IMG/VR virus record: IMGVR_UViG_3300042565_000743 | Location: 1-22,592 of that record | DNA: 22,592 nucleotides | Source of the DNA: a virus | Reading direction: 5' to 3' (one strand) | Shown: positions 1,301 through 14,254 of the stretch, piece after piece | Numbering within the stretch: the first letter of the stretch is position 1 | How the letters are laid out: every line of letters begins with the position of its first letter | The notes under the pieces: generated by a model | Databases searched by the model: none | What the model was told of the DNA's origin: nothing | What the model saw: the letters and a program-made list of their open reading frames with translations, nothing else | Translations under genes and position numbers: made by a program

Positions 1301-1798
1301 ATGGTCACTTACGGCGACGGCGGGGTTATTGATCCGGCCAAATTTCTTGACTACATTGCCAAGCAGTTTCCTACTGATCTGGCCAACCTGGTGAACGCCC
1401 GCGACGAGTTGGCCAAGCGCCAGGGCGCCATGAGCGCGGTGGAGAAGGCCAACAAGGACCGCGAAAAAGCGGCCAAGGTGTTGGAGGCGGCAACGGCTGA
1501 AGCGGCGACCATCGTGGCCGACGCGCAGAAGGTTGCTGACGCCAACGCCGCCAAAAAGGCCGAGTTGTACGCTCTCGAAACGGAGTTGGTCGCAGATCGA
1601 AAAGCGTTTGCTGCTGAGACCGTAGCCAAGACTGCGGATCTGACGACCCGTGAGCAGCAAGTCGCCAGCCGCGAGGCTGCGGCGGCCGCGCTGCAGGCCG
1701 AATACGCGAGCAAACTGCAAGCCCTTGACGCAGACCGGGCGGCGCTGAATGCTCGGGTAAAGGCGTTCCAAGACAAGGTTGCGGCACTCAGTGCCTGA
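1301..1798 (+). CDS. Alanine-rich coiled-coil protein
   Basis: The start ATG follows a good AAGGAG site at the end of the preceding gene. From about residue 40 to the C-terminus the 165-residue product is almost continuous Ala/Glu/Lys/Gln-rich helix with heptad-like spacing (AKRQGAMSAVEKANKDREKA and later ALQAEYASKLQALDADRAAL), so a long coiled coil is predicted. The first 40 residues (DPAKFLDYIAKQFPTDLANL) look like a separate helical cap. Phages use such proteins as fibre shafts, chaperones or accessory scaffolds. Placement just before the fibre genes favours a fibre-related or assembly role, but I cannot assign one. Confidence 0.65.
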   Translation: MVTYGDGGVIDPAKFLDYIAKQFPTDLANLVNARDELAKRQGAMSAVEKANKDREKAAKVLEAATAEAATIVADAQKVADANAAKKAELYALETELVADRKAFAAETVAKTADLTTREQQVASREAAAAALQAEYASKLQALDADRAALNARVKAFQDKVAALSA

Positions 1799-1806
1799 GG
1801 TGTGAT

Positions 1807-3663
1807 ATGGCCGGCGTCAAGATTGCGGATCTTCCAGCATCAACTCTCCCGCTCACGGGCACAGAGTTGGTGCCTGTGGTGCAGGGCGGCGCTACTAAGA
1901 ACGCCGCGGTGTCCAGTGTCTGGGCTGGCGCAGTCTCATCCGTCAGCTTCGGCAGCACCGGGCTGACGCCTGCAACGGCCACCACCGGCGCGGTGACCGT
2001 GGCCGGCACGCTGGCCGTGGCAAACGGTGGCACGGGCGTTACGACGAGCACGGGTACTGGCAGCACCGTGCTGTCCACCAGCCCGACACTCGCCACGCCG
2101 ATCCTCGGCACGCCCACCTCGGTTACGTTGACCAACGCAACGGGTTTGCCGCTCACCACAGGGGTGACGGGCACGCTGCCAGTCGCCAACGGCGGTAACG
2201 GTACGGCTACACCCGCGCTGACGGCGGGCACAAACGTATCGATCACGGGCTCTTGGCCTAACTACACGATTGCGGCCAGCGGTGGGGCTGGCGGCGGCGA
2301 TGTTACCGGACCAGCGTCCAGCACTGATAACGCGGTGGTTCGGTTTGATGGTACGTCCGGCAAGCTCATCCAAAACTCCGGTGTTCAGATTAACGACCTA
2401 GGCGAAGTCAGCGTAGGCGTTTGGAAAGGCACTGAAGTTGGCATTTCTTACGGCGGCACCGGAGCATCTACGGCTTCTCAGGCGCGTGGCAACTTGCTTC
2501 CGTCGTATACCAGCAACGCTAACAAAGTGTTGGCGGTCAACACAGGCGCCACTGACGTCGAATGGACTACCGCCGGTTCCGGCACGGTTACTAGCGTCGC
2601 GCTGTCTGGTGGAACAACAGGGTTGACGGCCAGCGGCAGCCCTATTACTACGTCCGGCACGTTCACTTTGGGCGGCACGTTGGCTGTAGCTAACGGCGGC
2701 ACTGGAGCGGGGACGTTCACGGCTAACAACGTGCTGTTGGGCAACGGCACTTCGGCTTTCCAAGTTGTTGCGCCGGGGACCAACGGAAACGTGCTGACTT
2801 CCAACGGCACTACTTGGACTTCTGCTGCGGCTCCGGGTGGCGGGCTGACTTACGTTTACAAGACGACTACCTACACGGCGTCTGACAAAGAAGGCGTCCT
2901 TGCCGACACTTCTGGCGGGGCGTTCACCGTCACGCTGCCGGCCACCCCATCTACGGGGGCTCAGGTTGTTGTTGCCGATGCAGGCGCTGCGTGGGGCACT
3001 AACAACCTGACGGTTGGTCGTAACGGCTCCACAATTGCCAGCCTGGCTGAAGACCTTGTGTGCAACATCACCGGGGTTAGCGTTCAGTTGGTGTATGACG
3101 GCACCACTTGGGGGGTTTACGCTCAGGTTGGCGGCAACGGCGGGAACGTAGTTACAACTACTGGCACGCAGACGCTGACCAATAAGACCATCAGCGGCTC
3201 CAGCAACACGATCACCGACGTCAGTTTGACTACCGGCGTGACGGGTACGTTGCCTGTGGCGAATGGGGGAACAGGTAATACCTTCTTCTCTGTGAGCGGC
3301 CCTGCAAGCAGCACGAAGACCTACACGTTTCCTAATGAGAACATGACCGTGGGGTATCGAAACCTCCCAGCGGTTGGCACACAGACCGGCAGCTACACGC
3401 TTGCTGTAAACGATGTTGGCAAGTACGTGCAGGTCAGCACGGGCGGCAGCATCACGATCCCGACATCGACCTTTGCTGAAGGCGATGCGATCACCATCTA
3501 CAACAACACGACCGGCAACATCACGATCACCTGCTCTGCGCCGACGGCATATATAGCGGGCACAAATACGGTCAAAACCTCAATGACGCTTGCAACTCGC
3601 GGTGTGGCAACTGTGCTGTTCTACAGCGCCACCGCCTGCGTAGTGTCGGGGAACGTGACATGA
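1807..3663 (+). CDS. Tail-fibre-like protein with GGTG repeats
   Basis: This 618-residue protein has the low-complexity Thr/Gly/Ser/Val composition of phage fibres. The hallmark ANGGTG-type motif appears at about residues 69-77, 124-132, 292-300 and 482-490, with a variant (ISYGGTG) at 213-219; such motifs mark beta-turn repeats of trimeric fibre shafts. Around 454-463 the TQTLTNKTISG motif is also typical of phage fibre proteins. The C-terminal ~110 residues form a beta-rich cap. The N-terminus (KIADLPA....LTGTELVPVVQGG) is a common start for this group. A GAGG site precedes the ATG. The role is most likely host-surface contact or fibre shaft; the receptor is unknown. The stop overlaps the next start by 4 bases. 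Confidence 0.75.
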   Translation: MAGVKIADLPASTLPLTGTELVPVVQGGATKNAAVSSVWAGAVSSVSFGSTGLTPATATTGAVTVAGTLAVANGGTGVTTSTGTGSTVLSTSPTLATPILGTPTSVTLTNATGLPLTTGVTGTLPVANGGNGTATPALTAGTNVSITGSWPNYTIAASGGAGGGDVTGPASSTDNAVVRFDGTSGKLIQNSGVQINDLGEVSVGVWKGTEVGISYGGTGASTASQARGNLLPSYTSNANKVLAVNTGATDVEWTTAGSGTVTSVALSGGTTGLTASGSPITTSGTFTLGGTLAVANGGTGAGTFTANNVLLGNGTSAFQVVAPGTNGNVLTSNGTTWTSAAAPGGGLTYVYKTTTYTASDKEGVLADTSGGAFTVTLPATPSTGAQVVVADAGAAWGTNNLTVGRNGSTIASLAEDLVCNITGVSVQLVYDGTTWGVYAQVGGNGGNVVTTTGTQTLTNKTISGSSNTITDVSLTTGVTGTLPVANGGTGNTFFSVSGPASSTKTYTFPNENMTVGYRNLPAVGTQTGSYTLAVNDVGKYVQVSTGGSITIPTSTFAEGDAITIYNNTTGNITITCSAPTAYIAGTNTVKTSMTLATRGVATVLFYSATACVVSGNVT

Positions 3664-4502
3664 CGGGCATCATGCAGATGTTTGTTGGGGCAACTGTATC
3701 TGCGCTGTTGCCGCCTTCAACCGTCGAGTATCTTGTTGTTGCTGGTGGCGGCGGCGGTGGCTACGACAACGCAGGTGGCGGAGGCGCTGGCGGTTATCTC
3801 ACAGCTTCTGGTTTTGGTGTTAGTTCTGGTTCCGCTATCACAGTAACTGTTGGTGCTGGCGGGGCAGGAGACACATCTTCTGGGGGGGCCGGCGCAAACG
3901 GATCAAACTCAGTATTTAGTTCTATTACCTCAACTGGCGGCGGCGGTGGTGGCACAAACAATAACGCAGGCGCAAACGGTGGCTCAGGCGGCGGCGGCGC
4001 TTACCAAAACCAATCCGGCGGTAACGGAACGTCTGGGCAGGGCAACAACGGCGGCTCTGGCGGATCTACCAGTATTCCCGGCGGCGGGGGCGGCGGCGCA
4101 GGTGCTGCGGGAACTAGCGGCACTTCTAACAGTAATGGTGGCGATGGTTTGCAGTCGTCTATCTCTGGAACCGCAACGTATTACGCAGGTGGGGGTGGTG
4201 GAACACGCAGAACATTAACACCGGGACAAGGTGGTTTAGGTGGCGGCGGCGCTGGCGCTGCAGGTGTCAGCGGTGGGGCTAATGCTGTTGCTGGAACCGC
4301 AAACACTGGTGGTGGTGGTGGTGGTGGGGCCGGCGCGGGCGATCCTTCCCCAAATGGCGCTGCTGGAGGTTCCGGCATCGTCATCATTCGGTACGCAGAC
4401 ACATTTGCTGCTGCAGTAGCCACCACTGGCTCCCCAACTGTTACGGTAACAGGCGGCTTCCGTATCTATCAATGGACCGGCAGCGGCACCATCACGTTCT
4501 AA
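3660..4502 (+). CDS. Glycine-rich adhesin-like protein, copy 1
   Basis: The ATG overlaps the previous stop (ATGA). The 280-residue product has a short N-terminal cap, then VEYLVVAGGGGGG, a long body of poly-Gly runs mixed with Ser, Asn and Ala, and a conserved C-terminal beta segment (GSGIVIIRYAD, then TGGFRIYQWTGSGTITF). This is the phage glycine-rich domain architecture. In some fibre-tip adhesins comparable Gly runs fold as polyglycine-II helices (known from phage S16 gp38); that this protein does so is inference. It is paralogous to the gene at 5026, with the same start-of-domain and end-of-domain motifs. The body contains an in-frame GGT microsatellite and a seven-G tract. A likely role is a surface-binding tip or decoration. 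Confidence 0.7.
   Translation: MTGIMQMFVGATVSALLPPSTVEYLVVAGGGGGGYDNAGGGGAGGYLTASGFGVSSGSAITVTVGAGGAGDTSSGGAGANGSNSVFSSITSTGGGGGGTNNNAGANGGSGGGGAYQNQSGGNGTSGQGNNGGSGGSTSIPGGGGGGAGAAGTSGTSNSNGGDGLQSSISGTATYYAGGGGGTRRTLTPGQGGLGGGGAGAAGVSGGANAVAGTANTGGGGGGGAGAGDPSPNGAAGGSGIVIIRYADTFAAAVATTGSPTVTVTGGFRIYQWTGSGTITF
4308..4325 (+). repeat. In-frame GGT trinucleotide repeat (six copies)
   Basis: Six consecutive GGT codons are read in frame as glycine inside the glycine-rich protein, followed directly by GGGG. Because the unit is three bases, gain or loss of copies would change the number of glycines without breaking the frame. Confidence 0.85.
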
Positions 4503-4511
4503 GGACATAGC

Positions 4512-5015
4512 ATGGCAACTCTTTCAAACCTGATTACGCCGAGCAATATCGTAGTTGCTACGTCCTCAAACACGTTTACCGCTACACAGACGTTTAATGG
4601 GTCTTCTAGCGCTTTGGCGCTTGTCCTAAACGACGCTGCTGAGACCTGCACCATCTCTGCCACTGCTGCAACGGGCACGATTAACTACGATGTGACCACG
4701 CAGTCGGTCCTGTACTACACAACCAACGCTTCAGCCAACTGGACGGTGAACTTCCGCGCGTCTAGCGGCACCAGCCTGAATACGGCGATGAGCACCGGCC
4801 AAAGCGTGACAGTAGCTTTCTTGGTGACTCAAGGCGCTACGGCCTACTACAACAACGTGGTGCAGGTAGATGGCAGTGCAGTCACGCCTAAGTATCAAGG
4901 TGGCACGGCATGGAGCGCAGGCAACGTGTCGGGAATCGACGCCTATGTGTACACCATCATAAAAACTGGCAGCGCGGCGTTTACCGTTCTTGCGTCCCAA
5001 ACGCAGTTCAAGTAA
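4512..5015 (+). CDS. Beta-rich fibre-associated protein (167 residues)
   Basis: The start has an AAGGA site and lies 9 bases after the previous gene. The 167-residue product opens like a fibre protein (SSNTFTATQTFNGSSS). It then contains a domain with LNDAAETCTISATAATGTIN, SVTVAFLVTQGATAYYNN, a VTPKYQGGTA stretch and a TIIKTGSAAFTVLASQTQFK ending. I recognise this domain from many marine and freshwater phage fibre genes, where it often sits at the C-terminus of longer proteins; here it is nearly stand-alone. It is sandwiched between two glycine-rich paralogues, which suggests these three products work in the same fibre or adhesin assembly. Binding partner and receptor are unknown. Confidence 0.7.
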   Translation: MATLSNLITPSNIVVATSSNTFTATQTFNGSSSALALVLNDAAETCTISATAATGTINYDVTTQSVLYYTTNASANWTVNFRASSGTSLNTAMSTGQSVTVAFLVTQGATAYYNNVVQVDGSAVTPKYQGGTAWSAGNVSGIDAYVYTIIKTGSAAFTVLASQTQFK

Positions 5016-5025
5016 GGAGCCGCTT

Positions 5026-5895
5026 ATGCCACTGATTGCTACATCAGGCGCGGCAACCGCTCGCGGGTTTGGGCTTTTTAACCGCACCAATTTAGCCCGC
5101 ACGGTTGACTATCTTGTTGTTGCGGGTGGCGGCGGCGGTGGTGCAGCGGACAATAATGACGGCGGCGGCGGCGGTGCTGGGGCTGGCGGCTATCGTCAGT
5201 CTTCGCTCAGTGTCCTAACTGGCGTTTCGTATACCGTAACTGTTGGCGGTGGTGGTTCGGGCGGTACAGCAAACAACCAAGGCGCAGACGGAAACGACTC
5301 TGTTTTTTCCACCATAACCGCAACCAAAGGTGGGGGTGGCGGCGGGGCGGGCAGTAATGGCCGCACAGGCGGTTCTGGTGGCGGTGGCGGTGGCCGAGGT
5401 AACACAGGCGCGGCAGGCACATCCGGGCAAGGAAACGCAGGTGGCAATGGGGGCCCAACACCTGGAGGCGGGGGCGGCGGCGGCGGCGCAAGTGCTGTAG
5501 GTACAAATGCTTCTGGAACAAGTGACGACGTTGGTGGTAATGGCGGCAACGGAACGGCTAATTCTTTGTCGGGATCTTCTACAACCTACGCTGGCGGCGG
5601 CGGCGGCGGAGCTCAAAGCGGCGCCTCAGACGGTGCGGGCGGCAATGGGGGCGGCGGCGATGGCGGTAGCAACAGCGTAGGTAGCAATGGTGTTGCTAAC
5701 ACAGGCGGTGGGGGCGGCGGCGCGGGACAAGGTGGCAGCGGCTACGATGGCGGAAACGGCGGCTCAGGCGTTGTCATCGTGCGGTACTCTGACTCATTCC
5801 CCGCAGCCGCTTCCACAACCGGCTCCCCCACTGTTACGGTTGCCGGCGGGTTCCGTATCTACAAATGGACCGGTTCCGGTTCCATTACGTTTTGA
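5026..5895 (+). CDS. Glycine-rich adhesin-like protein, copy 2
   Basis: I chose the ATG at 5026 because AAGGAG sits just upstream; an upstream in-frame start at 4990 would run into the previous gene and has no such site. The 289-residue product repeats the design of the gene at 3660: a short leader (ATSGAATARGFGLFNRTN), VDYLVVAGGGGGG, a body of glycine runs broken by Ser/Asn/Asp/Ala, and a closing beta segment with FRIYKWTGSGSITF. The two copies are similar at both ends but their glycine bodies differ, as expected after duplication and drift of simple sequence. The likely role is adhesion or virion surface decoration, by family resemblance only. Confidence 0.7.
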   Translation: MPLIATSGAATARGFGLFNRTNLARTVDYLVVAGGGGGGAADNNDGGGGGAGAGGYRQSSLSVLTGVSYTVTVGGGGSGGTANNQGADGNDSVFSTITATKGGGGGGAGSNGRTGGSGGGGGGRGNTGAAGTSGQGNAGGNGGPTPGGGGGGGGASAVGTNASGTSDDVGGNGGNGTANSLSGSSTTYAGGGGGGAQSGASDGAGGNGGGGDGGSNSVGSNGVANTGGGGGGAGQGGSGYDGGNGGSGVVIVRYSDSFPAAASTTGSPTVTVAGGFRIYKWTGSGSITF

Positions 5896-5903
5896 GGTTA
5901 CAC

Positions 5904-6272
5904 ATGGCGCATTTCGCACAGCTTGACACAAACAACATCGCTACCCAAGTTATCGTTGTGCATAACAACGAGCTGATGGACAACGGTGTGGAGTCTGAAG
6001 CCAAAGGCATTGCGTTCTGCCAGTCTCTGTTCGGCGCTGATACGACCTGGGTGCAGACCAGCTACAACGGCAACATGCGTAAGAACTACGCAGGCGTTGG
6101 GTTTAGTTACGACGCGCAGCGTGATGCGTTCATCCCGCCACAGCCGTATCCGTCATGGATGCTTGACGAAGCTACCTGCCGTTGGGCCGCGCCTGCGCCG
6201 TATCCGACAGACGGAAAACCATACCGCTGGGACGAGACTACTTTGACGTGGGTTGAAGTTGTCTTGGCCTAG
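5904..6272 (+). CDS. Conserved 122-residue aquatic-phage protein
   Basis: The ATG at 5904 follows GAGGTT and fits the family's usual start (MAHFAQLD); a longer in-frame start at 5865 lies inside the previous gene and is rejected. The product carries the familiar series of motifs ATQVIVVHNNEL, EAKGIAFCQSLFG, WVQTSYNGNMRKNYAG and a Pro/Trp-rich end (PPQPYPSWMLDEATCRWAAP, then a WDETTLTWVEV finish). Near-identical small proteins occur in many cyanophage, pelagiphage and other aquatic phage genomes, usually among fibre or structural genes. The function is not established to my knowledge. Aromatic residues spaced in the C-terminal half suggest a small compact domain. It closes the adhesin block. 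Confidence 0.75.
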   Translation: MAHFAQLDTNNIATQVIVVHNNELMDNGVESEAKGIAFCQSLFGADTTWVQTSYNGNMRKNYAGVGFSYDAQRDAFIPPQPYPSWMLDEATCRWAAPAPYPTDGKPYRWDETTLTWVEVVLA

Positions 6273-6292
6273 CTTTACAGAAGTGCTATAGT
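6264..6292 (+). promoter_or_regulatory. Possible sigma70-type promoter ahead of scaffold/coat genes
   Basis: TTGGCC (6264-6269) is followed, after 17 bases, by TATAGT (6287-6292) with an upstream TG at 6284-6285 (extended -10). The -35 box is only a partial match. It overlaps the end of the 122-residue gene and lies about 50 bases before the scaffold start, in one of the few intergenic gaps of the rightward block. Confidence 0.4.
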
Positions 6293-6340
6293 TTTACCAA
6301 CTGTACCGGCGCAGCGCACCGGGCACTCTAACGAGTACTT

Positions 6341-7138
6341 ATGACCACAGATACCTTAGCGGAAGTTGACTCCGTGCAAGCACCCGAGGTGACGGCCACC
6401 CCGGAACCAGAGCTTCATACGCCGGCAAACGCTGAACAACAGCCCGTTGAGGAAAAACCTGCGGAACGATTGTTTACTCAGGCAGAACTTGACGAGGTGG
6501 TGGACAAGCGTTTTAAGAAAGCGCGTCGACAGTGGGAACGAGAGCAAGCGGCCAAGTTGGCAGAAATGCAAACTAGGCAGTCTGCGCCAAAAGATGTTCC
6601 GCCAGTTGATCAGTTTGAGTCTCCGGAAGCATACGCGGAGGCGCTGGCCGTAAAGAAGGCCGAAGAACTGATTGCCTTGCGAGAGCAGCAAAAGGCTCAG
6701 GCAGCGATTGCTGACGCTTACCACGACAGGGAAGAAGAGGCCCGAAACAAGTACGACGACTTCGAACAAGTCGCCTACAACCCGAGCGTCCGAATCACTG
6801 ACGTGATGGCCGAAACGATCCGCGCTTCTGATGTTGGCCCTGATGTAGCCTACTACCTCGGAGCCAACCCCAAAGAAGCGGACCGTATCTCGCGCTTGTC
6901 GCCGTTCTTGCAGGCAAAAGAAATTGGGAAGATTGAAGGCAGACTGACCGACAATCCGCCCGTCAAACGAACTACGTCAGCGCCAGCACCGATCACACCT
7001 GTCACGGCCCGAAGCAGCAACAACCCGTCTTACGACACGACTGACCCGCGCTCCATCAAGAGCATGAGCACGTCGGAGTGGATTGAAGCTGAACGCGCCC
7101 GGCAGATGCGTAGGTTGCAAGCGCAGGCATCCCGCTAA
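6341..7138 (+). CDS. Capsid scaffolding protein
   Basis: This 265-residue protein directly precedes the coat gene, the standard place for a scaffold. The first ~45 residues are acidic, Pro/Glu-rich and probably disordered. They are followed by FTQAELDEVVDKRFKKARRQ and a long charged helical region (residues ~45-130), the pattern of phage scaffolds and of the GP20-type minor structural proteins. The C-terminus is basic and ends in a helix (STSEWIEAERARQMRRL) preceded by a disordered linker, comparable to the coat-binding basic tail of P22 scaffold. The predicted role is to guide coat assembly into procapsids and then leave. The ribosome site is weak. The next gene begins 19 bases downstream. 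Confidence 0.8.
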   Translation: MTTDTLAEVDSVQAPEVTATPEPELHTPANAEQQPVEEKPAERLFTQAELDEVVDKRFKKARRQWEREQAAKLAEMQTRQSAPKDVPPVDQFESPEAYAEALAVKKAEELIALREQQKAQAAIADAYHDREEEARNKYDDFEQVAYNPSVRITDVMAETIRASDVGPDVAYYLGANPKEADRISRLSPFLQAKEIGKIEGRLTDNPPVKRTTSAPAPITPVTARSSNNPSYDTTDPRSIKSMSTSEWIEAERARQMRRLQAQASR

Positions 7139-7157
7139 GACTTGAAAGGAATTCACC

Positions 7158-8357
7158 GTGGCCAATAGTATTCTGACCATTGACATGATCACCAGGAAGG
7201 CCCTGGAGATCTTGGAAAACAACCTGGTGCTCACGCGCAACGTGAACCGCCAGTACGACGACAGCTTCGCTGTCGAAGGGGCCAAGATCGGCTCCACGCT
7301 GCGCATCCGCCTGCCGGACCGCGCTCTGGTGACTGACGGCGCCGCTCTGCAAGCGCAGGACGACAACGAGCAGTTCACGACCCTGACCGTCTCCTCGCAG
7401 AAGCACATCGGCGTGAACTTCACGTCCGCCGAACTGACGATGCAGTTGGACGACTTTGCGGATCGTGTGCTGAAGCCTCGTATCAGCCAGCTTGCCTCCA
7501 GCATCGACGCTGACGTGGCCAACGCCTTCCGCACCATCGGCAACTCCGTTGGTACGCCCGGCACCACGCCGGCCACCTCGCTGGTTCTGCTGCAAGCCCA
7601 GCAGAAGCTCAACGAGAACGCTGCGGTGATGTCGCCCCGCTACGCCACCGTCAACCCTGCGGCCAACGCCGGGCTGGTGGAAGGTATGAAGGGCTTGTTC
7701 AACCCGACCGACACCATCAGCAAGCAGTTCAAGAACGGCATGATGGGCACGGGCGTGCTGGGCTTCGACGAGATCAACATGTCTCAGTCGATCAAGCAGT
7801 TCACGACTGGCTCGCGCACCAACGGCACGACGTCTGCTGCGGTGACGGCCGAAGGCGCGACTTCAATCGCGCTTACCGGCTTGGGCAGCACCAACACCGT
7901 TCTTGCTGGCGACGTGTTCACCGTGGCTGACTGCTTTGCGGTGAACCCGCAGACCCGTGAGTCTACTGGCTCGCTGTTCCAGTTTGTGGCGCTTGCCAAC
8001 GTGACTGCATCGGGCGGCGCGGCGACTGTTACGGTTGCTCCGATCTACTCGGCCGACCACGCGCTGGCTACCGTGAACGTTCTGCCTGCTACCAGCAAGG
8101 CAGCGACGTTCATCGGTTCTGCGTCTACGCAGTACCCGCAGAACCTGGTGTACCACAAGGACGCGATCACGTTCGCCACTGCTGACCTCTTGCTGCCGCA
8201 AGGTGTTGACATGGCCGCGCGCGCCAACCACAACGGCATCAGCCTGCGTATCGTGCGTCAGTACGACATCAACAACGACCGGATGCCCTGCCGGATTGAC
8301 GTGCTGTACGGTTACAGCACCATCCGTCCGCAGATGGCTTGCCGTCTCTGGGGCTAA
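7158..8357 (+). CDS. Major capsid (coat) protein, P22 gp5 type
   Basis: The gene starts with GTG, supported by a strong GAAAGGA site 7 bases upstream. The 399-residue product matches the P22 coat family. It has an N-terminal MANSILTIDMITRKALEILE, a beta hinge region with GSTLRIRLPDRA at ~45-56, the long spine helix region at ~88-130, and a central insert at ~220-330 containing DVFTVADCFAVNPQTREST (~252-270). That AVNPxTxxSTG motif is a marker of this family. The C-terminus (SLRIVRQYDINNDRMPCRID, then a GYSTIRPQMACRLWG finish) is also characteristic. It forms the icosahedral shell. Length is slightly below P22 coat (430). A terminator-like hairpin follows closely. Confidence 0.93.
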   Translation: MANSILTIDMITRKALEILENNLVLTRNVNRQYDDSFAVEGAKIGSTLRIRLPDRALVTDGAALQAQDDNEQFTTLTVSSQKHIGVNFTSAELTMQLDDFADRVLKPRISQLASSIDADVANAFRTIGNSVGTPGTTPATSLVLLQAQQKLNENAAVMSPRYATVNPAANAGLVEGMKGLFNPTDTISKQFKNGMMGTGVLGFDEINMSQSIKQFTTGSRTNGTTSAAVTAEGATSIALTGLGSTNTVLAGDVFTVADCFAVNPQTRESTGSLFQFVALANVTASGGAATVTVAPIYSADHALATVNVLPATSKAATFIGSASTQYPQNLVYHKDAITFATADLLLPQGVDMAARANHNGISLRIVRQYDINNDRMPCRIDVLYGYSTIRPQMACRLWG

Positions 8358-8365
8358 ACCGAAAC

Positions 8366-8397
8366 GGGGGCTGCTAAACGTATAGCGGCCCCCTTTT
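8366..8397 (+). terminator. Rho-independent terminator-like hairpin after coat gene
   Basis: GGGGGC (8366-8371) pairs with GCCCCC (8388-8393). The stem continues through a T-G wobble and GCT/AGC, giving about 10 pairs with an 8-base loop, and is followed by four T residues (8394-8397). It lies 8 bases after the coat stop. The short T-run suggests partial rather than full termination. Confidence 0.75.
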
Positions 8398-8422
8398 GAA
8401 ATTCATCTGAAAGGAATAGATC

Positions 8423-8836
8423 ATGGCTCTCCCTAATGGCGCTGGCGGCTATCAAGTTGGTCCAGGCAACCGCAACGAAACTACGATGGGGTACGCGGCT
8501 ACTCCGCAGACCGCAACCGCAACCGCAACCCTGACGGCTGCTCAACTGGTCGGCGGCATGTTGGTGGCCAACCCATCCACGAGCGCGGCGACCTACACGC
8601 TGCCTGCTGCATCGACGCTGGAAGCCGCGCTGCCCAACGCTACCGTTGGCAGCACGTTCGACCTGTCCGTTGTCAACATCGGCACGTCGTCTGGCACCGT
8701 GACGTTCTCTATGGGAACGGGCACCGGCTTCACTGACGGCGGCAACGCCGTCGCGGTTGTGGCCGTCACGACCAGCGCGATTTTCCGCTTCCGGAAGACC
8801 GCGGAAAACGCGTACACGGTCTACAAGGCTGCGTGA
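8423..8836 (+). CDS. Small beta-rich protein, possible capsid decoration
   Basis: The gene has an AAGGAA site and lies between two terminator-like hairpins directly after the coat gene. The 137-residue product starts ALPNGAGGYQVGPGNRNE. It then has a short Thr-Ala repeat (QTATATATL) and a beta-sandwich-like body (AATYTLPAASTLEAALPN, STFDLSVVNIGTSSGTVTFS) ending in RFRKTAENAYTVYKAA. Many phages place a head-decoration protein at this position, and the size fits, but the body also resembles the distal beta caps of fibre proteins. Decoration is therefore an inference from location. No membrane segment or signal is seen. Confidence 0.65.
   Translation: MALPNGAGGYQVGPGNRNETTMGYAATPQTATATATLTAAQLVGGMLVANPSTSAATYTLPAASTLEAALPNATVGSTFDLSVVNIGTSSGTVTFSMGTGTGFTDGGNAVAVVAVTTSAIFRFRKTAENAYTVYKAA
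8510..8530 (+). repeat. Short hexanucleotide repeat (ACCGCA x3)
   Basis: Three tandem ACCGCA units plus a partial fourth encode the alternating Thr-Ala run near residue 30 of the 137-residue protein. The repeat is in frame, so copy-number change would add or remove Thr-Ala pairs. Confidence 0.7.
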
Positions 8837-8843
8837 TCAATCA

Positions 8844-8865
8844 GGGGGCTTCGGCCCCCGTTTTT
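8844..8865 (+). terminator. Strong rho-independent terminator with UUCG loop
   Basis: GGGGGC (8844-8849), the loop TTCG (8850-8853) and GCCCCC (8854-8859) form a perfect six-pair stem with a C-UUCG-G tetraloop. A five-T run (8861-8865) follows after one G. It lies 7 bases after the stop of the 137-residue gene and ends just before the next ribosome site. Confidence 0.85.
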
Positions 8866-8878
8866 GAAAGGAACGATG

Positions 8879-9349
8879 ATGCCTAATACCAAGGCTGTCG
8901 GCGTCGCGTACAGCGACCCCGAGTTTGAAAGCGTTACCGTTACGGGTGCGGTTGCTGTTACGGGCGCTGTTACCGGCGCTTCGGTTAGTGGAGGTACCGT
9001 CTATGCGTCCAGCGAGTTGGGGTACACCGCAGACGCGCAAGGCACCGTGACGCAGGCGACCAGCAAGAGTACGGCAGTCACGCTGAACACATCCGCAGGG
9101 CAGATCACTACCAACAACGCCGCGTTGAACGCCACCACGACGGTGACGTTCACGTTCAACAACTCCACCATCAGCGCCAATGACACTGTGGTTCTCACGG
9201 TTGCTGCGGGGGCGACGGCTGGCGGGTACAACGCTTGGATCACTGGTCTGAACGCTGGCTCTGCGACCATCGCTTTGCGCAACATCACAGGCGGCTCTTT
9301 GTCCGAAGCGGTGGTGCTGAACTTTGCGGTAATCCACTGCTTGACGTAA
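8879..9349 (+). CDS. Beta-rich structural protein (156 residues)
   Basis: Two adjacent ATG codons (8876 and 8879) follow GAAAGGA. The second gives the better 6-base spacing, so I use 8879. The product begins PNTKAVGVAYSDPEFESVTV, has Val/Thr/Gly repeats (GAVAVTGAVTGASVSGGTVY) and then a domain with ASSELGYTADAQGTVTQATS, a TVTFTFNNSTISANDTVVLT strand pair and a SLSEAVVLNFAVIH finish. I recognise this domain from small phage genes beside coat genes and from the ends of fibre proteins. A role on the virion surface or as a fibre tip is likely. A third hairpin follows the stop. Confidence 0.65.
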   Translation: MPNTKAVGVAYSDPEFESVTVTGAVAVTGAVTGASVSGGTVYASSELGYTADAQGTVTQATSKSTAVTLNTSAGQITTNNAALNATTTVTFTFNNSTISANDTVVLTVAAGATAGGYNAWITGLNAGSATIALRNITGGSLSEAVVLNFAVIHCLT

Positions 9350-9353
9350 CGGA

Positions 9354-9371
9354 AAGGGGCTTCGGCCCCTT
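9354..9371 (+). terminator. UUCG hairpin without T-run, just before next start
   Basis: AAGGGGC (9354-9360), TTCG (9361-9364) and GCCCCTT (9365-9371) form a perfect seven-pair stem with a stable C-UUCG-G tetraloop. No T-run follows, and the next ATG begins 6 bases later (9378). It could pause transcription, protect a 3' end, or limit translation of the next gene. Confidence 0.55.
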
Positions 9372-9377
9372 GTCTCA

Positions 9378-9572
9378 ATGGCTGTCATCTATCTTCGCCA
9401 CCCCATCCACGGGGCCAAGGTTGCCACGATGGAAATGGAGGCAATCTACGACGAGCGAAACGGGTGGGAGCGGTATACTCCCGGCGTTGAAAACGAGCAA
9501 GACGCCGCGCCGCCAGTGAACGCACTGGGCCGCCGCCGCCGTAAGGAGCCAGAGCATGTCCTCAGCGGGTGA
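9378..9572 (+). CDS. Small conserved phage protein (64 residues)
   Basis: The product contains IYLRHPIHGAKVATMEMEA followed by a DERNGWERYTPG segment, a short variable acidic part and a basic LGRRRRKEP end. The RHPxHGxKVA...NGWERY pattern is one I recognise from small genes upstream of gp4-type adaptors in P22-like phages. There is no ribosome site of note because a stable hairpin ends 6 bases before the ATG, so expression may be low or coupled. It overlaps the adaptor gene by 17 bases. The function is unknown; neck assembly is suggested only by location. Confidence 0.7.
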   Translation: MAVIYLRHPIHGAKVATMEMEAIYDERNGWERYTPGVENEQDAAPPVNALGRRRRKEPEHVLSG

Positions 9573-10266
9573 TCAGATCCAGCGCGCCTTGCGTCTGCTG
9601 GGCGTATTGGCAGAAGGCGAAACCACATCCGCCGCCGTTATGCAGGACTCGCTGACGGCGATGAACCAGATGATCGACTCGTGGAACACCGAGCGGCTGT
9701 CTGTGTTCAGCACGCAAGATCAAGTGTTCAATTGGCCCGCCAGCACGATCAGCCGCACGCTGGGGCCTACGGGCGACTTTGTGGGTAACCGGCCCGTCCT
9801 GCTGGACGACTCAACGTACTTCCGCGACCCCGGCACGAACGTCAGCTTCGGCATCAAGATGATCAATCAGCAGCAGTACAACGGTATTGCTGTCAAGACG
9901 GTCACGTCAACGTATCCGCAGGTGCTGTGGATCAACATGACGTACCCCGACATTGAGATGTACATCTACCCGGTGCCCACGCGGCTGCTGGAGTGGCACT
10001 TCATCTCGGTTGAGGAGTTGACGCAGCCGGCAACGCTGGCCACCGAGCTGACGTTTCCGCCAGGCTACCTGCGAGCGTTTACCTACAACTTGGCGATGGA
10101 GATCGCGCCCGAGTTTGGCGTGGAGCCGTCACCGCAGGTTCAGCGCATCGCCATGACGTCCAAGCGCAACATCAAGCGCATCAACAACCCTGACGACATC
10201 ATGAGCCTGCCGTACTCGTTGGTGGCCACTCGCCAGCGGTTCAACGTCTACGCCGGGAATTACTGA
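9556..10266 (+). CDS. Head-to-tail adaptor, P22 gp4-type tail accessory factor
   Basis: AAGGAG precedes the ATG at 9556. The 236-residue product matches P22-type tail accessory factors (P22 gp4). It has an N-terminal helical part with IQRALRLLGVLAEGE and ALTAMNQMIDSWNTERL-like helices, a central YFRDPGTNVSFGIKMI...QQQYNGIAVK region, and a conserved Pro/Tyr-rich stretch (YPDIEMYIYPVPTRLLEWHF). The end, with FPPGYLRAFTYNLAMEIAPE and then NNPDDIMSLPY, is equally typical. In the virion this protein forms the ring below the portal that closes the packaged head and receives the tail hub. It is longer than P22 gp4 (166). The gp10-type gene starts 2 bases after its stop. Confidence 0.85.
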   Translation: MSSAGDQIQRALRLLGVLAEGETTSAAVMQDSLTAMNQMIDSWNTERLSVFSTQDQVFNWPASTISRTLGPTGDFVGNRPVLLDDSTYFRDPGTNVSFGIKMINQQQYNGIAVKTVTSTYPQVLWINMTYPDIEMYIYPVPTRLLEWHFISVEELTQPATLATELTFPPGYLRAFTYNLAMEIAPEFGVEPSPQVQRIAMTSKRNIKRINNPDDIMSLPYSLVATRQRFNVYAGNY

Positions 10267-10268
10267 TC

Positions 10269-11807
10269 GTGAAGACCCCGATCCTCGGGTCAGCATACGT
10301 CGCCCGCAGCGTCAATGCTGCGGACAACCGGATGATCAACCTGTTTCCGGAGATCGTACCGGAGGCAGGCAAGGAGCCGGCGTTCTTGCAGCGCGCGCCG
10401 GGGCTGCGGCTGCTGGCGTCTGTCGGCAGCGGGCCTGTCCGAGGTCTGTGGGCCTTTGGTGGTTACGGCTATGTGGCCAGCGGCAACACGCTGTACCGCG
10501 TCGATTCCAGTTGGCAGGTCACCACAATCGGCACGCTGACGGGCACCGGTCCGGTCAGCATGGCCGACAACGGCACGCAGTTGTTCATCGCCTGCAACGG
10601 CCCCAGCTACATCTACTCCGGCTCGGGTCAATTCGCGCAGATCACAGACCCAGACTTCCCCGGCGCGGTGACGGTCGGCTACCTTGACGGGTACTTCGTC
10701 TTCAACGAGCCTACCAGCCAGCGCGTATGGGTCACAAGCCTGCTGGATGGCACTTCGGTAGATCCGCTGGATTTTGCGAGCGCAGAGGGCTCGCCAGACG
10801 GCTTGGTGAGCCTGATCATCGACCACCGTGAAGCCTGGCTCTTCGGCACCAACTCGGTTGAGGTCTGGTACGACAGCGGCGCCGCTGATTTTCCTCTGAC
10901 GCGGATTCAGGGTGCGTTCAACGAGATCGGTTGCGCTGCGGCGTTCTCGGTGGCCAGGCTGGACAACGGGCTGTTTTGGCTCGGCGCTGACGCGCGCGGG
11001 CGCGGCATCGTCTACCGCGCAAACGGCTACACGGGCCAGCGCATCAGCACGCACGCGGTGGAGTGGCAGATTCAGCAGTACGGCAACCTGGCCGACGCGG
11101 TGGGGTACACCTACCAGCAAGACGGCCACGCCTTCTATGCGCTAAATTTCCCCACAGCCAACACCACTTGGGTTTACGACGTGTCCACCAGCGCCTGGCA
11201 TGAGCGTGCCGGTTGGAACGCTACGTTGGGGCTATTCACGCGGCACCGCGGCAACTGCCAGATGGCGTTTGCCAACGAGATCGTCGTGGGCGACTACGAA
11301 AACGGCAACATCTACGCGCTGGACTTGGACGTCTACGCCGACAACACCGCGCCGCAAAGGTGGCTGCGGTCGTGGCGGGCGCTGCCCACTGGCAAGAACG
11401 ATCTGAAACGCACAGCGCACCACACGCTGCAGCTTGACTGCGAAACCGGCGTGGGTCTGAACGGGCGCGACTTTTTTGACGCTGGGGATGCACTTCTCAC
11501 GCAAGACGGTTTGGAACTGCTTACCGAAAGCGGAGAAACCCTGCTCGCGTACCAAGACGATGCGGCATACGTCGTAGGAGCCAACCCGCAGGTTATGCTG
11601 CGCTGGTCAGACGATGGCGGCCACACTTGGTCAAACGAGCACTGGACGTCTATAGGGCGCATCGGCGAGTACGGTCGCCGAGCGTTCTGGCGCCGACTGG
11701 GCATGACGCTGAAACTGCGTGACCGGGTGTACGAGATCAGCGGCACAGATCCGGTCAAGATCGCCATCATGGGCGCTGAGTTGAACATCAGCGGCACCAA
11801 CGCATGA
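10269..11807 (+). CDS. Packaged-DNA stabilisation / tail hub protein, P22 gp10 type
   Basis: A GTG start is set 2 bases after the adaptor stop. The 512-residue product begins KTPILGSAYVARSVNAADNR, then has a MINLFPEIVPEAGKEPAFLQ element that marks the P22 gp10 family, and continues as repeated beta blades (GLWAFGGYGYVASGNTLYRV, MADNGTQLFIACNGPSYIYS, and so on), consistent with a beta-propeller-like fold. Length is near P22 gp10 (472). In P22 this protein seals the DNA in the head and joins the adaptor to the tailspikes and needle. Order after gp4 is the same as in P22. The stop overlaps the next ATG by 4 bases, indicating translational coupling. Confidence 0.88.
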   Translation: MKTPILGSAYVARSVNAADNRMINLFPEIVPEAGKEPAFLQRAPGLRLLASVGSGPVRGLWAFGGYGYVASGNTLYRVDSSWQVTTIGTLTGTGPVSMADNGTQLFIACNGPSYIYSGSGQFAQITDPDFPGAVTVGYLDGYFVFNEPTSQRVWVTSLLDGTSVDPLDFASAEGSPDGLVSLIIDHREAWLFGTNSVEVWYDSGAADFPLTRIQGAFNEIGCAAAFSVARLDNGLFWLGADARGRGIVYRANGYTGQRISTHAVEWQIQQYGNLADAVGYTYQQDGHAFYALNFPTANTTWVYDVSTSAWHERAGWNATLGLFTRHRGNCQMAFANEIVVGDYENGNIYALDLDVYADNTAPQRWLRSWRALPTGKNDLKRTAHHTLQLDCETGVGLNGRDFFDAGDALLTQDGLELLTESGETLLAYQDDAAYVVGANPQVMLRWSDDGGHTWSNEHWTSIGRIGEYGRRAFWRRLGMTLKLRDRVYEISGTDPVKIAIMGAELNISGTNA

Positions 11808-12364
11808 CCAGCCCGCCGAACATCACCAACATCACGCCGCCGCGTGTTCCGCTTGTTGACAGCGAGACGGGGCTGATTTCGCGGGAGTGGTACAGGTTCT
11901 TGCTGAACCTGTTTGTGTTGACGGGCAGCGGAACCAGTTCGGCTACGCTTAAAGATTTACAGGTTGGGCCGCCCGTAACGGATTATGCCGGTCAGATCGA
12001 CGGTGTTCAATACGCCGCGCAGACCGAGCCAACCACTACTGACTACGCTGCGGAGATCGCGCGGCTGCGCGCGGATTTAGAGATTGGGACGCAGCCGCCG
12101 GTTGTTCCGCCGCAAACGTCCAATTACACGACGCCAGCTAGCGCGATCACGCCGACTGGCTCGCCGTTCACCTACACCAACCAGACTGGGTATACAGTAG
12201 ACGTTATCGTCAGCGGCGGCGGCGTTAGTCTGTTGGAGTTTTCCCGTGATGGTGCTACATTTTTTAGCACTGGCAGTTTCTACGGGATGTTCACGCTTTC
12301 ACCAAATGATCGATTGCGGGTCACCTATGTGGCGGCTCCGACCATGACTCTCGTTCCGAGGTAA
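11804..12364 (+). CDS. Neck/tail protein in the needle slot (186 residues)
   Basis: The ATG overlaps the gp10-type stop (ATGA). The N-terminal third has a conserved-looking PPRVPLVDSETGLISREWYR motif followed by a hydrophobic helix (FLLNLFVLTGSG). A short helix with heptad character lies at ~82-95 (DYAAEIARLRADLE), then a Pro-rich linker. The last ~75 residues form a small beta domain (SPFTYTNQTGYTVDVIVSGG, then RLRVTYVAAPTMTLV). The PPRVPLVD...REWYRFL start recurs in phage genes next to tailspikes. In P22 the position after gp10 is held by the needle gp26, but this protein lacks gp26's long trimeric coiled coil. It may be a spike adaptor or a different plug. Confidence 0.65.
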   Translation: MTSPPNITNITPPRVPLVDSETGLISREWYRFLLNLFVLTGSGTSSATLKDLQVGPPVTDYAGQIDGVQYAAQTEPTTTDYAAEIARLRADLEIGTQPPVVPPQTSNYTTPASAITPTGSPFTYTNQTGYTVDVIVSGGGVSLLEFSRDGATFFSTGSFYGMFTLSPNDRLRVTYVAAPTMTLVPR

Positions 12365-12367
12365 CAA

Positions 12368-14254
12368 ATGGCCACTCTTTCTCCAGCACCGAAACTACAG
12401 TTTTTTGACGCCAACGGCAACCCTTTGGTGGGCGGCAAACTGTACTCCTACGCGGCTGGCACGACCACGCCGCTGGCCACCTACACCGACGCGGGGGGCG
12501 CGACGGCTAACACCAACCCCATCATTCTTGACAGTCGCGGCGAGGCGTCTGTGTGGCTGGGCGACGCATCGTACAAGCTCAGGCTGACGTCTGCCACCGA
12601 CGTAGACATCTGGACGGTGGACAACATCAACGCCATTTCGGTGCTGACCACGCTGGCCGCGTCCAACGGCTCCAGCCTTGTAGGGTACGTTCAGGCCGGC
12701 ACGGGCGCGGTGGCCACCACGGTCCAAGCGCGCCTGCGCCAGTCGTTGTCGGTCAAGGACTTTGGCGCTACGGGCGACGGGTCTACCGACGACACCACGG
12801 CGATCCAGAACGCGCTGAACGCCGGCACCGGGCGCAGCGTCTATTTCCCCGCTGGCACCTACCGCATCTCCACGACGCTGCTCGTCAAGACCAAGACGAC
12901 GCTGATCGGCGAGGGGATGAACAAGTCGATCATCAAGCTGACCTCCGGGTTCGGGGCAGGCACGACCGCAATCCGCAATGAGATCATTTCAGGTACGGTC
13001 AATGTCTACTACGACACCGACTTGGAGTTCTACGGGCTGACGTTTGACGGCAACAACAACTCCACTCGCACAGCCGAACTTGTCGCCGTTGCCAAGGTGC
13101 AGAACGTCACGTTCTCCAACTGCAGTTTCCAGAACCACACATACATTGCGTTGGCTATGACTGCCAACAGCAACATGGTGGTGACGGAGTGCTACTTCAC
13201 CAACAACGGGCGCCCCATCCCGTCTACGACCAGCGCGCCCGCGCTCTGGGTTGCGGAAACTGTACTGGGGATGCCGTATGACGTGCGCATAGAGAACAAC
13301 TACTTCCGCGATAACAACTGGTCTGCGGCGTACTTCATGCCGACCAGAGGATCGTTCACCAACAACAACTGCGTTGACAGCGGCGAATCTGCAATCTTCT
13401 GCAACAACACCGGCTCATATCTTCGCATTGAGAACAACAACATCACCGGCACAACCCGGTCCAACATTTCCGGGTCGGGGATTGAATGCGGCGCTTCAAA
13501 TACGGTCATTACCGGCAACACGATTGACAGTTGTGCTGCGGAAGGTATCGCACTGACTGACGCTCAGAACGTCACGATTGCCAACAACCTCATTTTCAAC
13601 AACGGGCAAGACACAGCGTACTACCCGTTTGCAAACGGCATTACTATCGTCAGCTCGGTCGCTTCGCCAGGACAACCTGACCATATCCAGATCCACGGCA
13701 ACCGGATTGGCGACCGTCAAGGGACGAAGACGCAGTACGCAGCCATTGGGTTTGGCGGCGCAGGTGCAGCGTGTACAAACGTCGCCATCTACAACAACGA
13801 CTTTGCAGAGCAGAAGACCGCCACCTACTACAACCTGACAGCGGCGCGGTTTGGTACGGGCTGCTACACGTTGAACAACTACGACCGCGTCGGCGCGCTG
13901 TTGCCGCCGTTTAAGTACGTTCAGTTTACGTTGAACGCTGGCGCTGGTGCGCAAGCGATTACAGGGGTCGGTTTTCGCCCCCGCGCTTTGCGAATTACTG
14001 CGGTGCTTACGTCAACTACGCAGGCGTTTACGTCTGTGGGTACGCATGACGGCACGTCGGGCACGGTAATTTTTAGCTCGGTAGACGGAACAGGCCGACG
14101 CGGCGGCGGCGATACGGGCGTTATCAACATCAAAGACAGCGCAGGTACGGCATTGGCGGTTGCAAACATGACGTCATATGATATTGACGGCTTCACCATC
14201 AACGTCGTCACGGGCAACTCGTCCGTGGTTTGCAACGTAGAGTGTTTCCCGTAA
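12368..14254 (+). CDS. Tailspike: head-binding domain plus beta-helix (pectate-lyase-3-like)
   Basis: This 628-residue protein has three parts. Residues ~1-110 (QFFDANGNPLVGGKLYSYAA, then PIILDSRGEASVWLGDASYK) resemble the P22 tailspike head-binding region. Residues ~128-150 (SVKDFGATGDGSTDDTTAIQ) are the signature opening of pectate-lyase-3 / phage tailspike beta-helices, and ~170-480 show repeated Asn-rich turns (VRIENNYFRDN, LRIENNNITG, VTIANNLIFNN) typical of a right-handed parallel beta-helix. Residues ~515-628 form a C-terminal beta cap, possibly for trimerisation. Such spikes bind and usually cleave O-antigen or capsule; catalytic residues cannot be assigned by eye. A GAGG site precedes the ATG. 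Confidence 0.88.
   Translation: MATLSPAPKLQFFDANGNPLVGGKLYSYAAGTTTPLATYTDAGGATANTNPIILDSRGEASVWLGDASYKLRLTSATDVDIWTVDNINAISVLTTLAASNGSSLVGYVQAGTGAVATTVQARLRQSLSVKDFGATGDGSTDDTTAIQNALNAGTGRSVYFPAGTYRISTTLLVKTKTTLIGEGMNKSIIKLTSGFGAGTTAIRNEIISGTVNVYYDTDLEFYGLTFDGNNNSTRTAELVAVAKVQNVTFSNCSFQNHTYIALAMTANSNMVVTECYFTNNGRPIPSTTSAPALWVAETVLGMPYDVRIENNYFRDNNWSAAYFMPTRGSFTNNNCVDSGESAIFCNNTGSYLRIENNNITGTTRSNISGSGIECGASNTVITGNTIDSCAAEGIALTDAQNVTIANNLIFNNGQDTAYYPFANGITIVSSVASPGQPDHIQIHGNRIGDRQGTKTQYAAIGFGGAGAACTNVAIYNNDFAEQKTATYYNLTAARFGTGCYTLNNYDRVGALLPPFKYVQFTLNAGAGAQAITGVGFRPRALRITAVLTSTTQAFTSVGTHDGTSGTVIFSSVDGTGRRGGGDTGVINIKDSAGTALAVANMTSYDIDGFTINVVTGNSSVVCNVECFP

What the first reader, a model, noticed from the sequence alone, without database searches (positions are those of the whole stretch)
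3660..5895. Duplicated glycine-rich adhesin genes flank a stand-alone fibre domain
Genes at 3660 and 5026 share the same opening (V(E/D)YLVVAGGGGGG) and the same ending (FRIYxWTGSG), with divergent glycine bodies, and enclose a 167-residue beta-rich protein. The glycine runs may fold as polyglycine-II, as in the S16 gp38 fibre tip, where loops set host specificity. Two copies would give the phage two binding tips or a source for recombination.
Basis: partly seen in the sequence, partly recalled or inferred. Interest (0 to 1): 0.6.

Follow-up and report, generated by a model that had tools for sequence, protein, structure and literature searches.

The report
Paired phage fibres with swappable tips
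This stretch of an aquatic virus of bacteria encodes two fibre proteins, each followed by its own separately made glycine-rich tip that seems to clip onto it through a short matched peptide, so host-recognition tips can probably be swapped like tool heads.

Summary
In detail: 3660-4502 and 5026-5895 encode glycine-rich proteins (Pfam Gly_rich_2) with shared ends and divergent bodies, on either side of a 167-aa protein. The framing needs correcting. They are not a special duplicate: their bodies are as different as those of copies from unrelated genomes, and arrays of up to seven copies are common. The 167-aa protein is not stand-alone. It is the C-terminal 'socket' domain of many unrelated fibres, and is followed by a gene starting PLxxTxGAASARGFG whatever that gene's body (glycine-rich, DUF7483, other). 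The 618-aa fibre at 1807 has a different socket, followed by genes starting M(S/T)GIM. In held-out contigs these pairings held in 38/54 and 22/68 cases with near-fixed patterns (49/52 and 63/66 relaxed) against about 0-1% of other gene pairs. So the block reads fibre A, tip A, fibre B, tip B, then a probable chaperone. AlphaFold2 gives an ordered core (pLDDT 92.5) matching the Pam3 cyanophage fibre and Bxb1 tail tip, rather than the S16 gp38 beta-helix type. A phage with a 99%-identical coat carries a tailspike cassette at exactly this site. Docking itself is inferred, not shown.

The parts
1807..3663 (+). Fibre A, 618 aa; the last ~110 aa are socket A; stop overlaps the Gly1 start by 4 bp (ATGA)
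   Evidence: socket A relatives in 80 loci; followed by plug A in 38/54 held-out gene pairs
3660..4502 (+). Tip A (Gly1), 280 aa: plug A about aa 1-18 (MTGIMQMFVG...), TNF-like strands plus glycine-rich body aa 20-246, conserved C-terminal strands aa 247-280
   Evidence: PF21722 7e-28; AF2 pLDDT 92.5, pTM 0.89; VIA Z 13.9 to Pam3 fibre and Bxb1 tail tip
4512..5015 (+). Fibre B, 167 aa: short N-terminal part plus socket B domain (phrog_5906)
   Evidence: C-terminal in 101 of 102 hits, on fibres with many different N-termini; AF2 pLDDT 67.9, C-terminal half 72-90
5026..5895 (+). Tip B (Gly2), 289 aa: plug B aa 1-18 (MPLIATSGAATARGFGLF), glycine-rich body, conserved C end
   Evidence: PF21722 1e-26; plug rule; L020 copy 95% identical
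5904..6272 (+). 122-aa protein (phrog_7759), candidate tip chaperone or assembly protein
   Evidence: phrog hit; follows a Gly gene directly in 120/136 occurrences; 5/5 in loci not fetched by Gly queries lie in Gly cassettes
1802..6297 (+). Exchangeable host-recognition cassette
   Evidence: L163 (coat 99% identical) aligns at 96.7% to 1129-1801 and 97.7% to 6298-10254 but not between; fibre A, Gly1, fibre B and Gly2 found in 0/31 coat relatives (122-aa gene 2/31) while the scaffold is in 31/31

Best explanation
The block is a host-recognition cassette of a P22-like aquatic podovirus, made of two fibre/tip pairs in series: fibre A (1807) + tip A (Gly1), then fibre B (167 aa) + tip B (Gly2), then a likely tip chaperone (5904). 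Each fibre ends in a C-terminal socket domain. The following gene starts with a short peptide (plug) specific for that socket class, and continues into an exchangeable receptor-binding body, here the Pam3-type TNF-like/glycine-rich fold whose variable loops would touch the host. Shown: homology, order, fold prediction, plug-socket co-occurrence, exchange of bodies and of whole cassettes. Inferred: that the plug physically docks on the socket, that both tips are in one virion, and that the loops bind receptors.
For: Exploratory set: plug B follows socket B in 57/71 gene pairs and no other of 3162; plug A follows socket A in 8/16 against 6/3217. Held-out contigs: A 38/54 against 1/848, B 22/68 against 0/834. 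Relaxed patterns: A 49/52, B 63/66, against 8 and 3 of 761 other pairs, with 0/66 A plugs after B sockets. Bodies after socket B: 25 Gly, 33 DUF7483-like, 13 other. The plug is kept at protein level: 62% aa identity while 63% of fourfold sites differ, as in an unaligned control (65%). Same pairing in isolates: Roseobacter phages CRP-3 and CRP-738, cyanophages S-CAM22, P-SSM7, Syn30, S-SCSM1, and a podovirus genome from Manatee Spring whose tip gene is annotated tail fiber adhesin gp38. In S-SCSM1 both members, one with Gly_rich_2, are annotated virion protein, and its virion proteome was measured by mass spectrometry (PMC9602691). Relatives with the Gly body fused to a fibre shaft lack a plug (L226, L184, L165). 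AF2 leaves the first ~10-20 residues of isolated Gly1 poorly ordered. Cassette exchange at the same site.
Against: No complex was predicted or measured. Conserved neighbours can co-occur by joint inheritance without touching. The plug patterns were designed after seeing followers; in the held-out test pattern A was loosened to allow GTG/TTG starts, and the stricter B pattern misses the window's own plug by one residue. Related contigs are not independent, so P values are nominal. The socket B model is of low confidence (pLDDT 67.9) and resembles nothing in the PDB above VIA Z 5.2. Socket A has no match in isolate phages.
Confidence: 0.72

Rival explanations
1. The conserved gene junction is a recombination target: similar DNA at the fibre end and tip start serves as homology arms for body swapping, and the peptide has no docking role.
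For: Bodies and whole cassettes do exchange between conserved ends. C ends of copies within one genome are closer at fourfold sites.
Against: Across phages, plug and socket are conserved as protein while fourfold sites are saturated, which recombination arms alone would not produce. Plug class follows socket class whatever the body.
Confidence: 0.12
2. The N-terminal peptide is a trimerisation or folding element of the tip itself, or a recognition site for an assembly protein, and the tip attaches elsewhere on the fibre or tail.
For: The glycine-rich Pam3 fibre gp24 is assembled with a chaperone (PMC9608196), and a small protein follows Gly genes here.
Against: Plug class tracks the upstream socket domain and not the body type.
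Confidence: 0.12
3. The glycine-rich proteins decorate the head or tail shaft rather than forming fibre tips.
For: The position between portal-side and scaffold genes is within the head module.
Against: Relatives have the same domain at the end of fibre shafts. The same site holds a tailspike-type cassette in L163. The fold matches a phage fibre tip and a tail tip.
Confidence: 0.04

Closest known systems
Myocyanophage Pam3 fibre gp24 (PDB 7YPX, 7YFW) with chaperone gp25
   Same: TNF-like sandwich with glycine-rich loops as the distal domain: VIA Z 13.9, 2.6 A over 168 residues; a phage-encoded chaperone assists its assembly (PMC9608196)
   Different: In Pam3 the glycine domain is fused to its own helical fibre shaft; here it is a separate gene with a short plug, and has an extra C-terminal strand segment (aa 247-280)
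Salmonella phage S16 gp37/gp38 long tail fibre tip
   Same: A separately encoded glycine-rich adhesin caps a trimeric fibre and attaches through its N-terminal domain (PMC6851490)
   Different: gp38 uses a beta-helix and a helical attachment domain with three tryptophans; no gp38 family hit here, and the plugs lack that tryptophan signature
Mycobacteriophage Bxb1 tail tip (PDB 9D93)
   Same: VIA Z 13.9, 3.1 A over 165 residues
   Different: Part of the tail tip of a mycobacteriophage, not a separate tip gene behind a socket-bearing fibre
ALK/LTK glycine-rich (TG) domains
   Same: TNF-like plus glycine-rich architecture, VIA Z about 5
   Different: Animal receptor kinases; weak match, no functional link

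Membership tests
PF21722 Gly_rich_2 | profile score above the Pfam gathering cut-off (24.3 bits) | tested here: met
   98.6 and 94.8 bits
Pam3-type TNF-like/glycine-rich fibre domain | fold match over most of the domain | tested here: met
   VIA Z 13.9, 168 residues, 2.6 A, well above the next unrelated rows at Z 5.6
Pam3-type TNF-like/glycine-rich fibre domain | trimeric assembly | not testable with these tools
   only single chains could be predicted
S16 gp38 adhesin | sequence membership in the gp38 family | tested here: not met
   no gp38 family among Pfam or PHROG hits at E up to 1
S16 gp38 adhesin | polyglycine-II helix lattice on a beta-helix | tested here: inconclusive
   S16 gp38 not among the rows listed; model coordinates not available for dihedral analysis
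S16 gp37/gp38-like two-gene fibre and tip | tip encoded just downstream of the fibre and joined through its N-terminal peptide | tested here: inconclusive
   gene order and plug-socket pairing shown; physical attachment not tested
P22-like podovirus | P22-type coat and head-completion proteins | tested here: met
   PF11651 1.6e-38; phrog_283 and phrog_578
Fibre chaperone (Tfa / Pam3 gp25) | sequence or profile match of the 122-aa protein | tested here: not met
   no Pfam hit, no PDB profile hit; the chaperone role rests on position only

The most novel reading that the evidence does not exclude
Phages of fresh and salt water (podoviruses, roseophages, T4-like cyanophages) share a small set of mutually specific socket domains on fibre ends and plug peptides on tip proteins, which lets unrelated receptor-binding bodies (glycine-rich, DUF7483, others) be mounted on unrelated fibres. 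At least two classes (A and B) exist, and this phage carries both.
Probability: 0.6. Interest if true: 0.65.

Novelty: new variant of a known kind. Interest (0 to 1): 0.52.

Why it matters
It gives a role to several families of unknown function (phrog_5906, phrog_7759, DUF7483) and a reading rule for aquatic phage genomes: the gene after a socket is the host-recognition tip, whatever it looks like. It turns an open problem, finding the receptor-binding proteins of uncultured phages, into a motif search, and it makes a simple binding prediction that can be tested with two small proteins.

Tried and rejected
tblastn of Gly1 against isolate phages found nothing, probably because BLAST masks glycine runs. 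phmmer of single proteins against the PDB gave nothing for the Gly proteins; a 41-sequence profile gave only a weak Pam3 hit, E 0.096. S16 gp38 did not appear in the fold searches, which does not exclude it. Socket A has no tblastn match in isolate phages, so class A is supported by viral contigs only. Recent duplication of Gly1/Gly2 was rejected: they are no closer to each other than to copies in other genomes. The socket B fold is unresolved: best VIA Z 5.2 to a capsid spike, within what chance can give. The 122-aa protein matched no solved chaperone. No tRNA genes in the window. Literature searches for PF21722 and DUF7483 returned no paper in the held library.

Full report
What is there. 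The window is a fragment of an uncultured virus (22,592 bp) with a P22-type coat gene (7158-8357, PF11651, 1.6e-38) and head-completion protein (10269-11807, phrog_578). Between the upstream head genes and the scaffold gene (6341) lie, on one strand and tightly packed, a 618-aa fibre-like gene (1807-3663), Gly1 (3660-4502, overlapping the fibre stop by 4 bp), a 167-aa gene (4512-5015), Gly2 (5026-5895) and a 122-aa gene (5904-6272).

Are Gly1 and Gly2 a special duplication? Both are PF21722 Gly_rich_2 proteins. Removing glycines, their bodies agree at 36/126 positions and their C ends at 26/36; across 73 family members the means for pairs from different genomes are 0.29 and 0.71. Gly1 is 55% identical to Gly2 but 66% to its counterpart in L020 and 63% to copies in other contigs. 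Of 131 loci with such genes, 74 have two or more, and L057 and L058 have seven (fetched with Gly and neighbouring queries and partly overlapping, so not a random sample). Two copies is ordinary for this family.

What the 167-aa protein is. Relatives are abundant (566 confirmed stretches). The domain is C-terminal in 101 of 102 hits, on proteins of 150 to over 1000 residues with many different N-termini. The next gene begins within about 10 bp in most cases with P(L/I/V)xxTxGAASAxGFG, while its body is glycine-rich, DUF7483 (PF24299, 1.6e-103 for L324) or something else. Gly2 begins MPLIATSGAATARGFGLF. The end of the 618-aa fibre is a different domain whose followers begin M(S/T)GIM; Gly1 begins MTGIMQMFVG.

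Test of the pairing. In the first set plug B followed socket B in 57/71 pairs and never elsewhere (0/3162); plug A followed socket A in 8/16 against 6/3217. That set had been fetched partly by socket B and the patterns were written after looking, so new contigs were fetched with the socket A end and with a distant socket B from Roseobacter phage CRP-3. With pattern B unchanged and pattern A changed only to allow GTG/TTG starts, A held in 38/54 against 1/848 and B in 22/68 against 0/834 (this count still includes two contigs seen before, L407 and L430). Relaxed patterns, with contigs already seen removed, gave 49/52 and 63/66 against 8 and 3 of 761 other gene pairs, 0/66 A plugs after B sockets and 3/52 B plugs after A sockets (relaxed post hoc). 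Contigs are related, so P values are nominal. Isolates show the same order: CRP-3 (MPFLASFGGGSARGF), CRP-738, S-CAM22, P-SSM7, Syn30, S-SCSM1, and a podovirus genome from Manatee Spring whose tip gene is annotated tail fiber adhesin gp38.

Why docking rather than recombination alone. Among 47 plug B genes, aa identity is 62% while 63% of fourfold sites differ, as in unaligned control codons (65%): the plug is kept as protein. Recombination also happens: within-genome C ends are closer at fourfold sites (0.40 against 0.63 expected, 0 of 2000 label shuffles) while bodies are not, and L408 has the fibre end, plug and both Gly ends at 89-91% DNA identity with no detectable DNA similarity in the body and without the fibre B/tip B pair. 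Relatives that carry the Gly body fused to a shaft have no plug. These fit a design in which the body is the exchangeable part and the plug the mount.

Fold. AlphaFold2 with 41 relatives gave mean pLDDT 92.5 and pTM 0.89 for Gly1, with only the first ~20 residues poorly ordered. The model matches the Pam3 cyanophage fibre (VIA Z 13.9, 2.6 A over 168) and the Bxb1 tail tip (Z 13.9, 3.1 A over 165), then ALK/LTK glycine-rich domains at Z about 5. In Pam3 the distal ends of the glycine loops are hypervariable and proposed to bind receptors (PMC9608196). S16 gp38 was not listed, which is inconclusive. Glycine geometry and trimers could not be tested. The 167-aa model is weaker (pLDDT 67.9).

Role. 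A virus with a 99%-identical coat (L163) aligns with the window at 96.7% up to 1801 and 97.7% from 6298, and between these points carries a cassette with a pectate-lyase-type tailspike. In 31 coat relatives none has the fibre, Gly or 167-aa genes at 40% identity and 60% coverage, while all have the scaffold. A fixed site with exchanged fibres and tailspikes is what a host-recognition locus looks like. In cyanophage S-SCSM1 the socket B fibre and its plug-bearing, Gly_rich_2-containing follower are both annotated virion protein, and the authors detected 45 virion proteins by mass spectrometry (PMC9602691); the supplementary list was not read.

The 122-aa gene follows a Gly gene in 120 of 136 occurrences; in loci fetched by coat or connector, all five lie in Gly cassettes, two with a 2OG-Fe(II) oxygenase between. 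By analogy with Pam3 gp25 a chaperone role is likely (about 0.5) but rests on position only.

Verdict. The raw observation is confirmed; the duplication is ordinary; the organisation is two fibre/tip pairs with matched junction classes. Docking is the best-supported mechanism but unproven.

Noticed in passing
window 11804-14254: A second variable recognition locus: the beta-helix (pectate-lyase-like) tailspike gene 12368-14254 and its neighbour are found in only 3-4 of 35 coat relatives and are replaced in L163.
   Followed up: partly
L220 479-1087, L226 1570-2223: A 2OG-Fe(II) oxygenase gene (PF13759 in L226) sits between the Gly tip gene and the 122-aa gene; it might hydroxylate fibre or tip residues.
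   Followed up: no
L005, L057, L058, L071, L262, L290: Tandem arrays of Gly genes with further N-terminal peptide classes (MIxxGIxxGxGV; MAQFPSDTxADGIWSLKxQ; MSxRYxGGxIS), often after a ~120-aa protein ending YEEIS: possibly more plug-socket classes.
   Followed up: partly
L407: A contig from another sample is 100% identical to window 1541-8660, probably the same virus.
   Followed up: no
L020: The same fibre A/Gly1/fibre B/Gly2/122-aa cassette lies in a different phage backbone, between a terminase-like gene and a 799-aa portal-like gene.
   Followed up: partly
window 10254-10270 against L163 and L164: About 0.6 kb of extra sequence lies at this gene boundary in close relatives; a related record has an endonuclease gene near there.
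   Followed up: no
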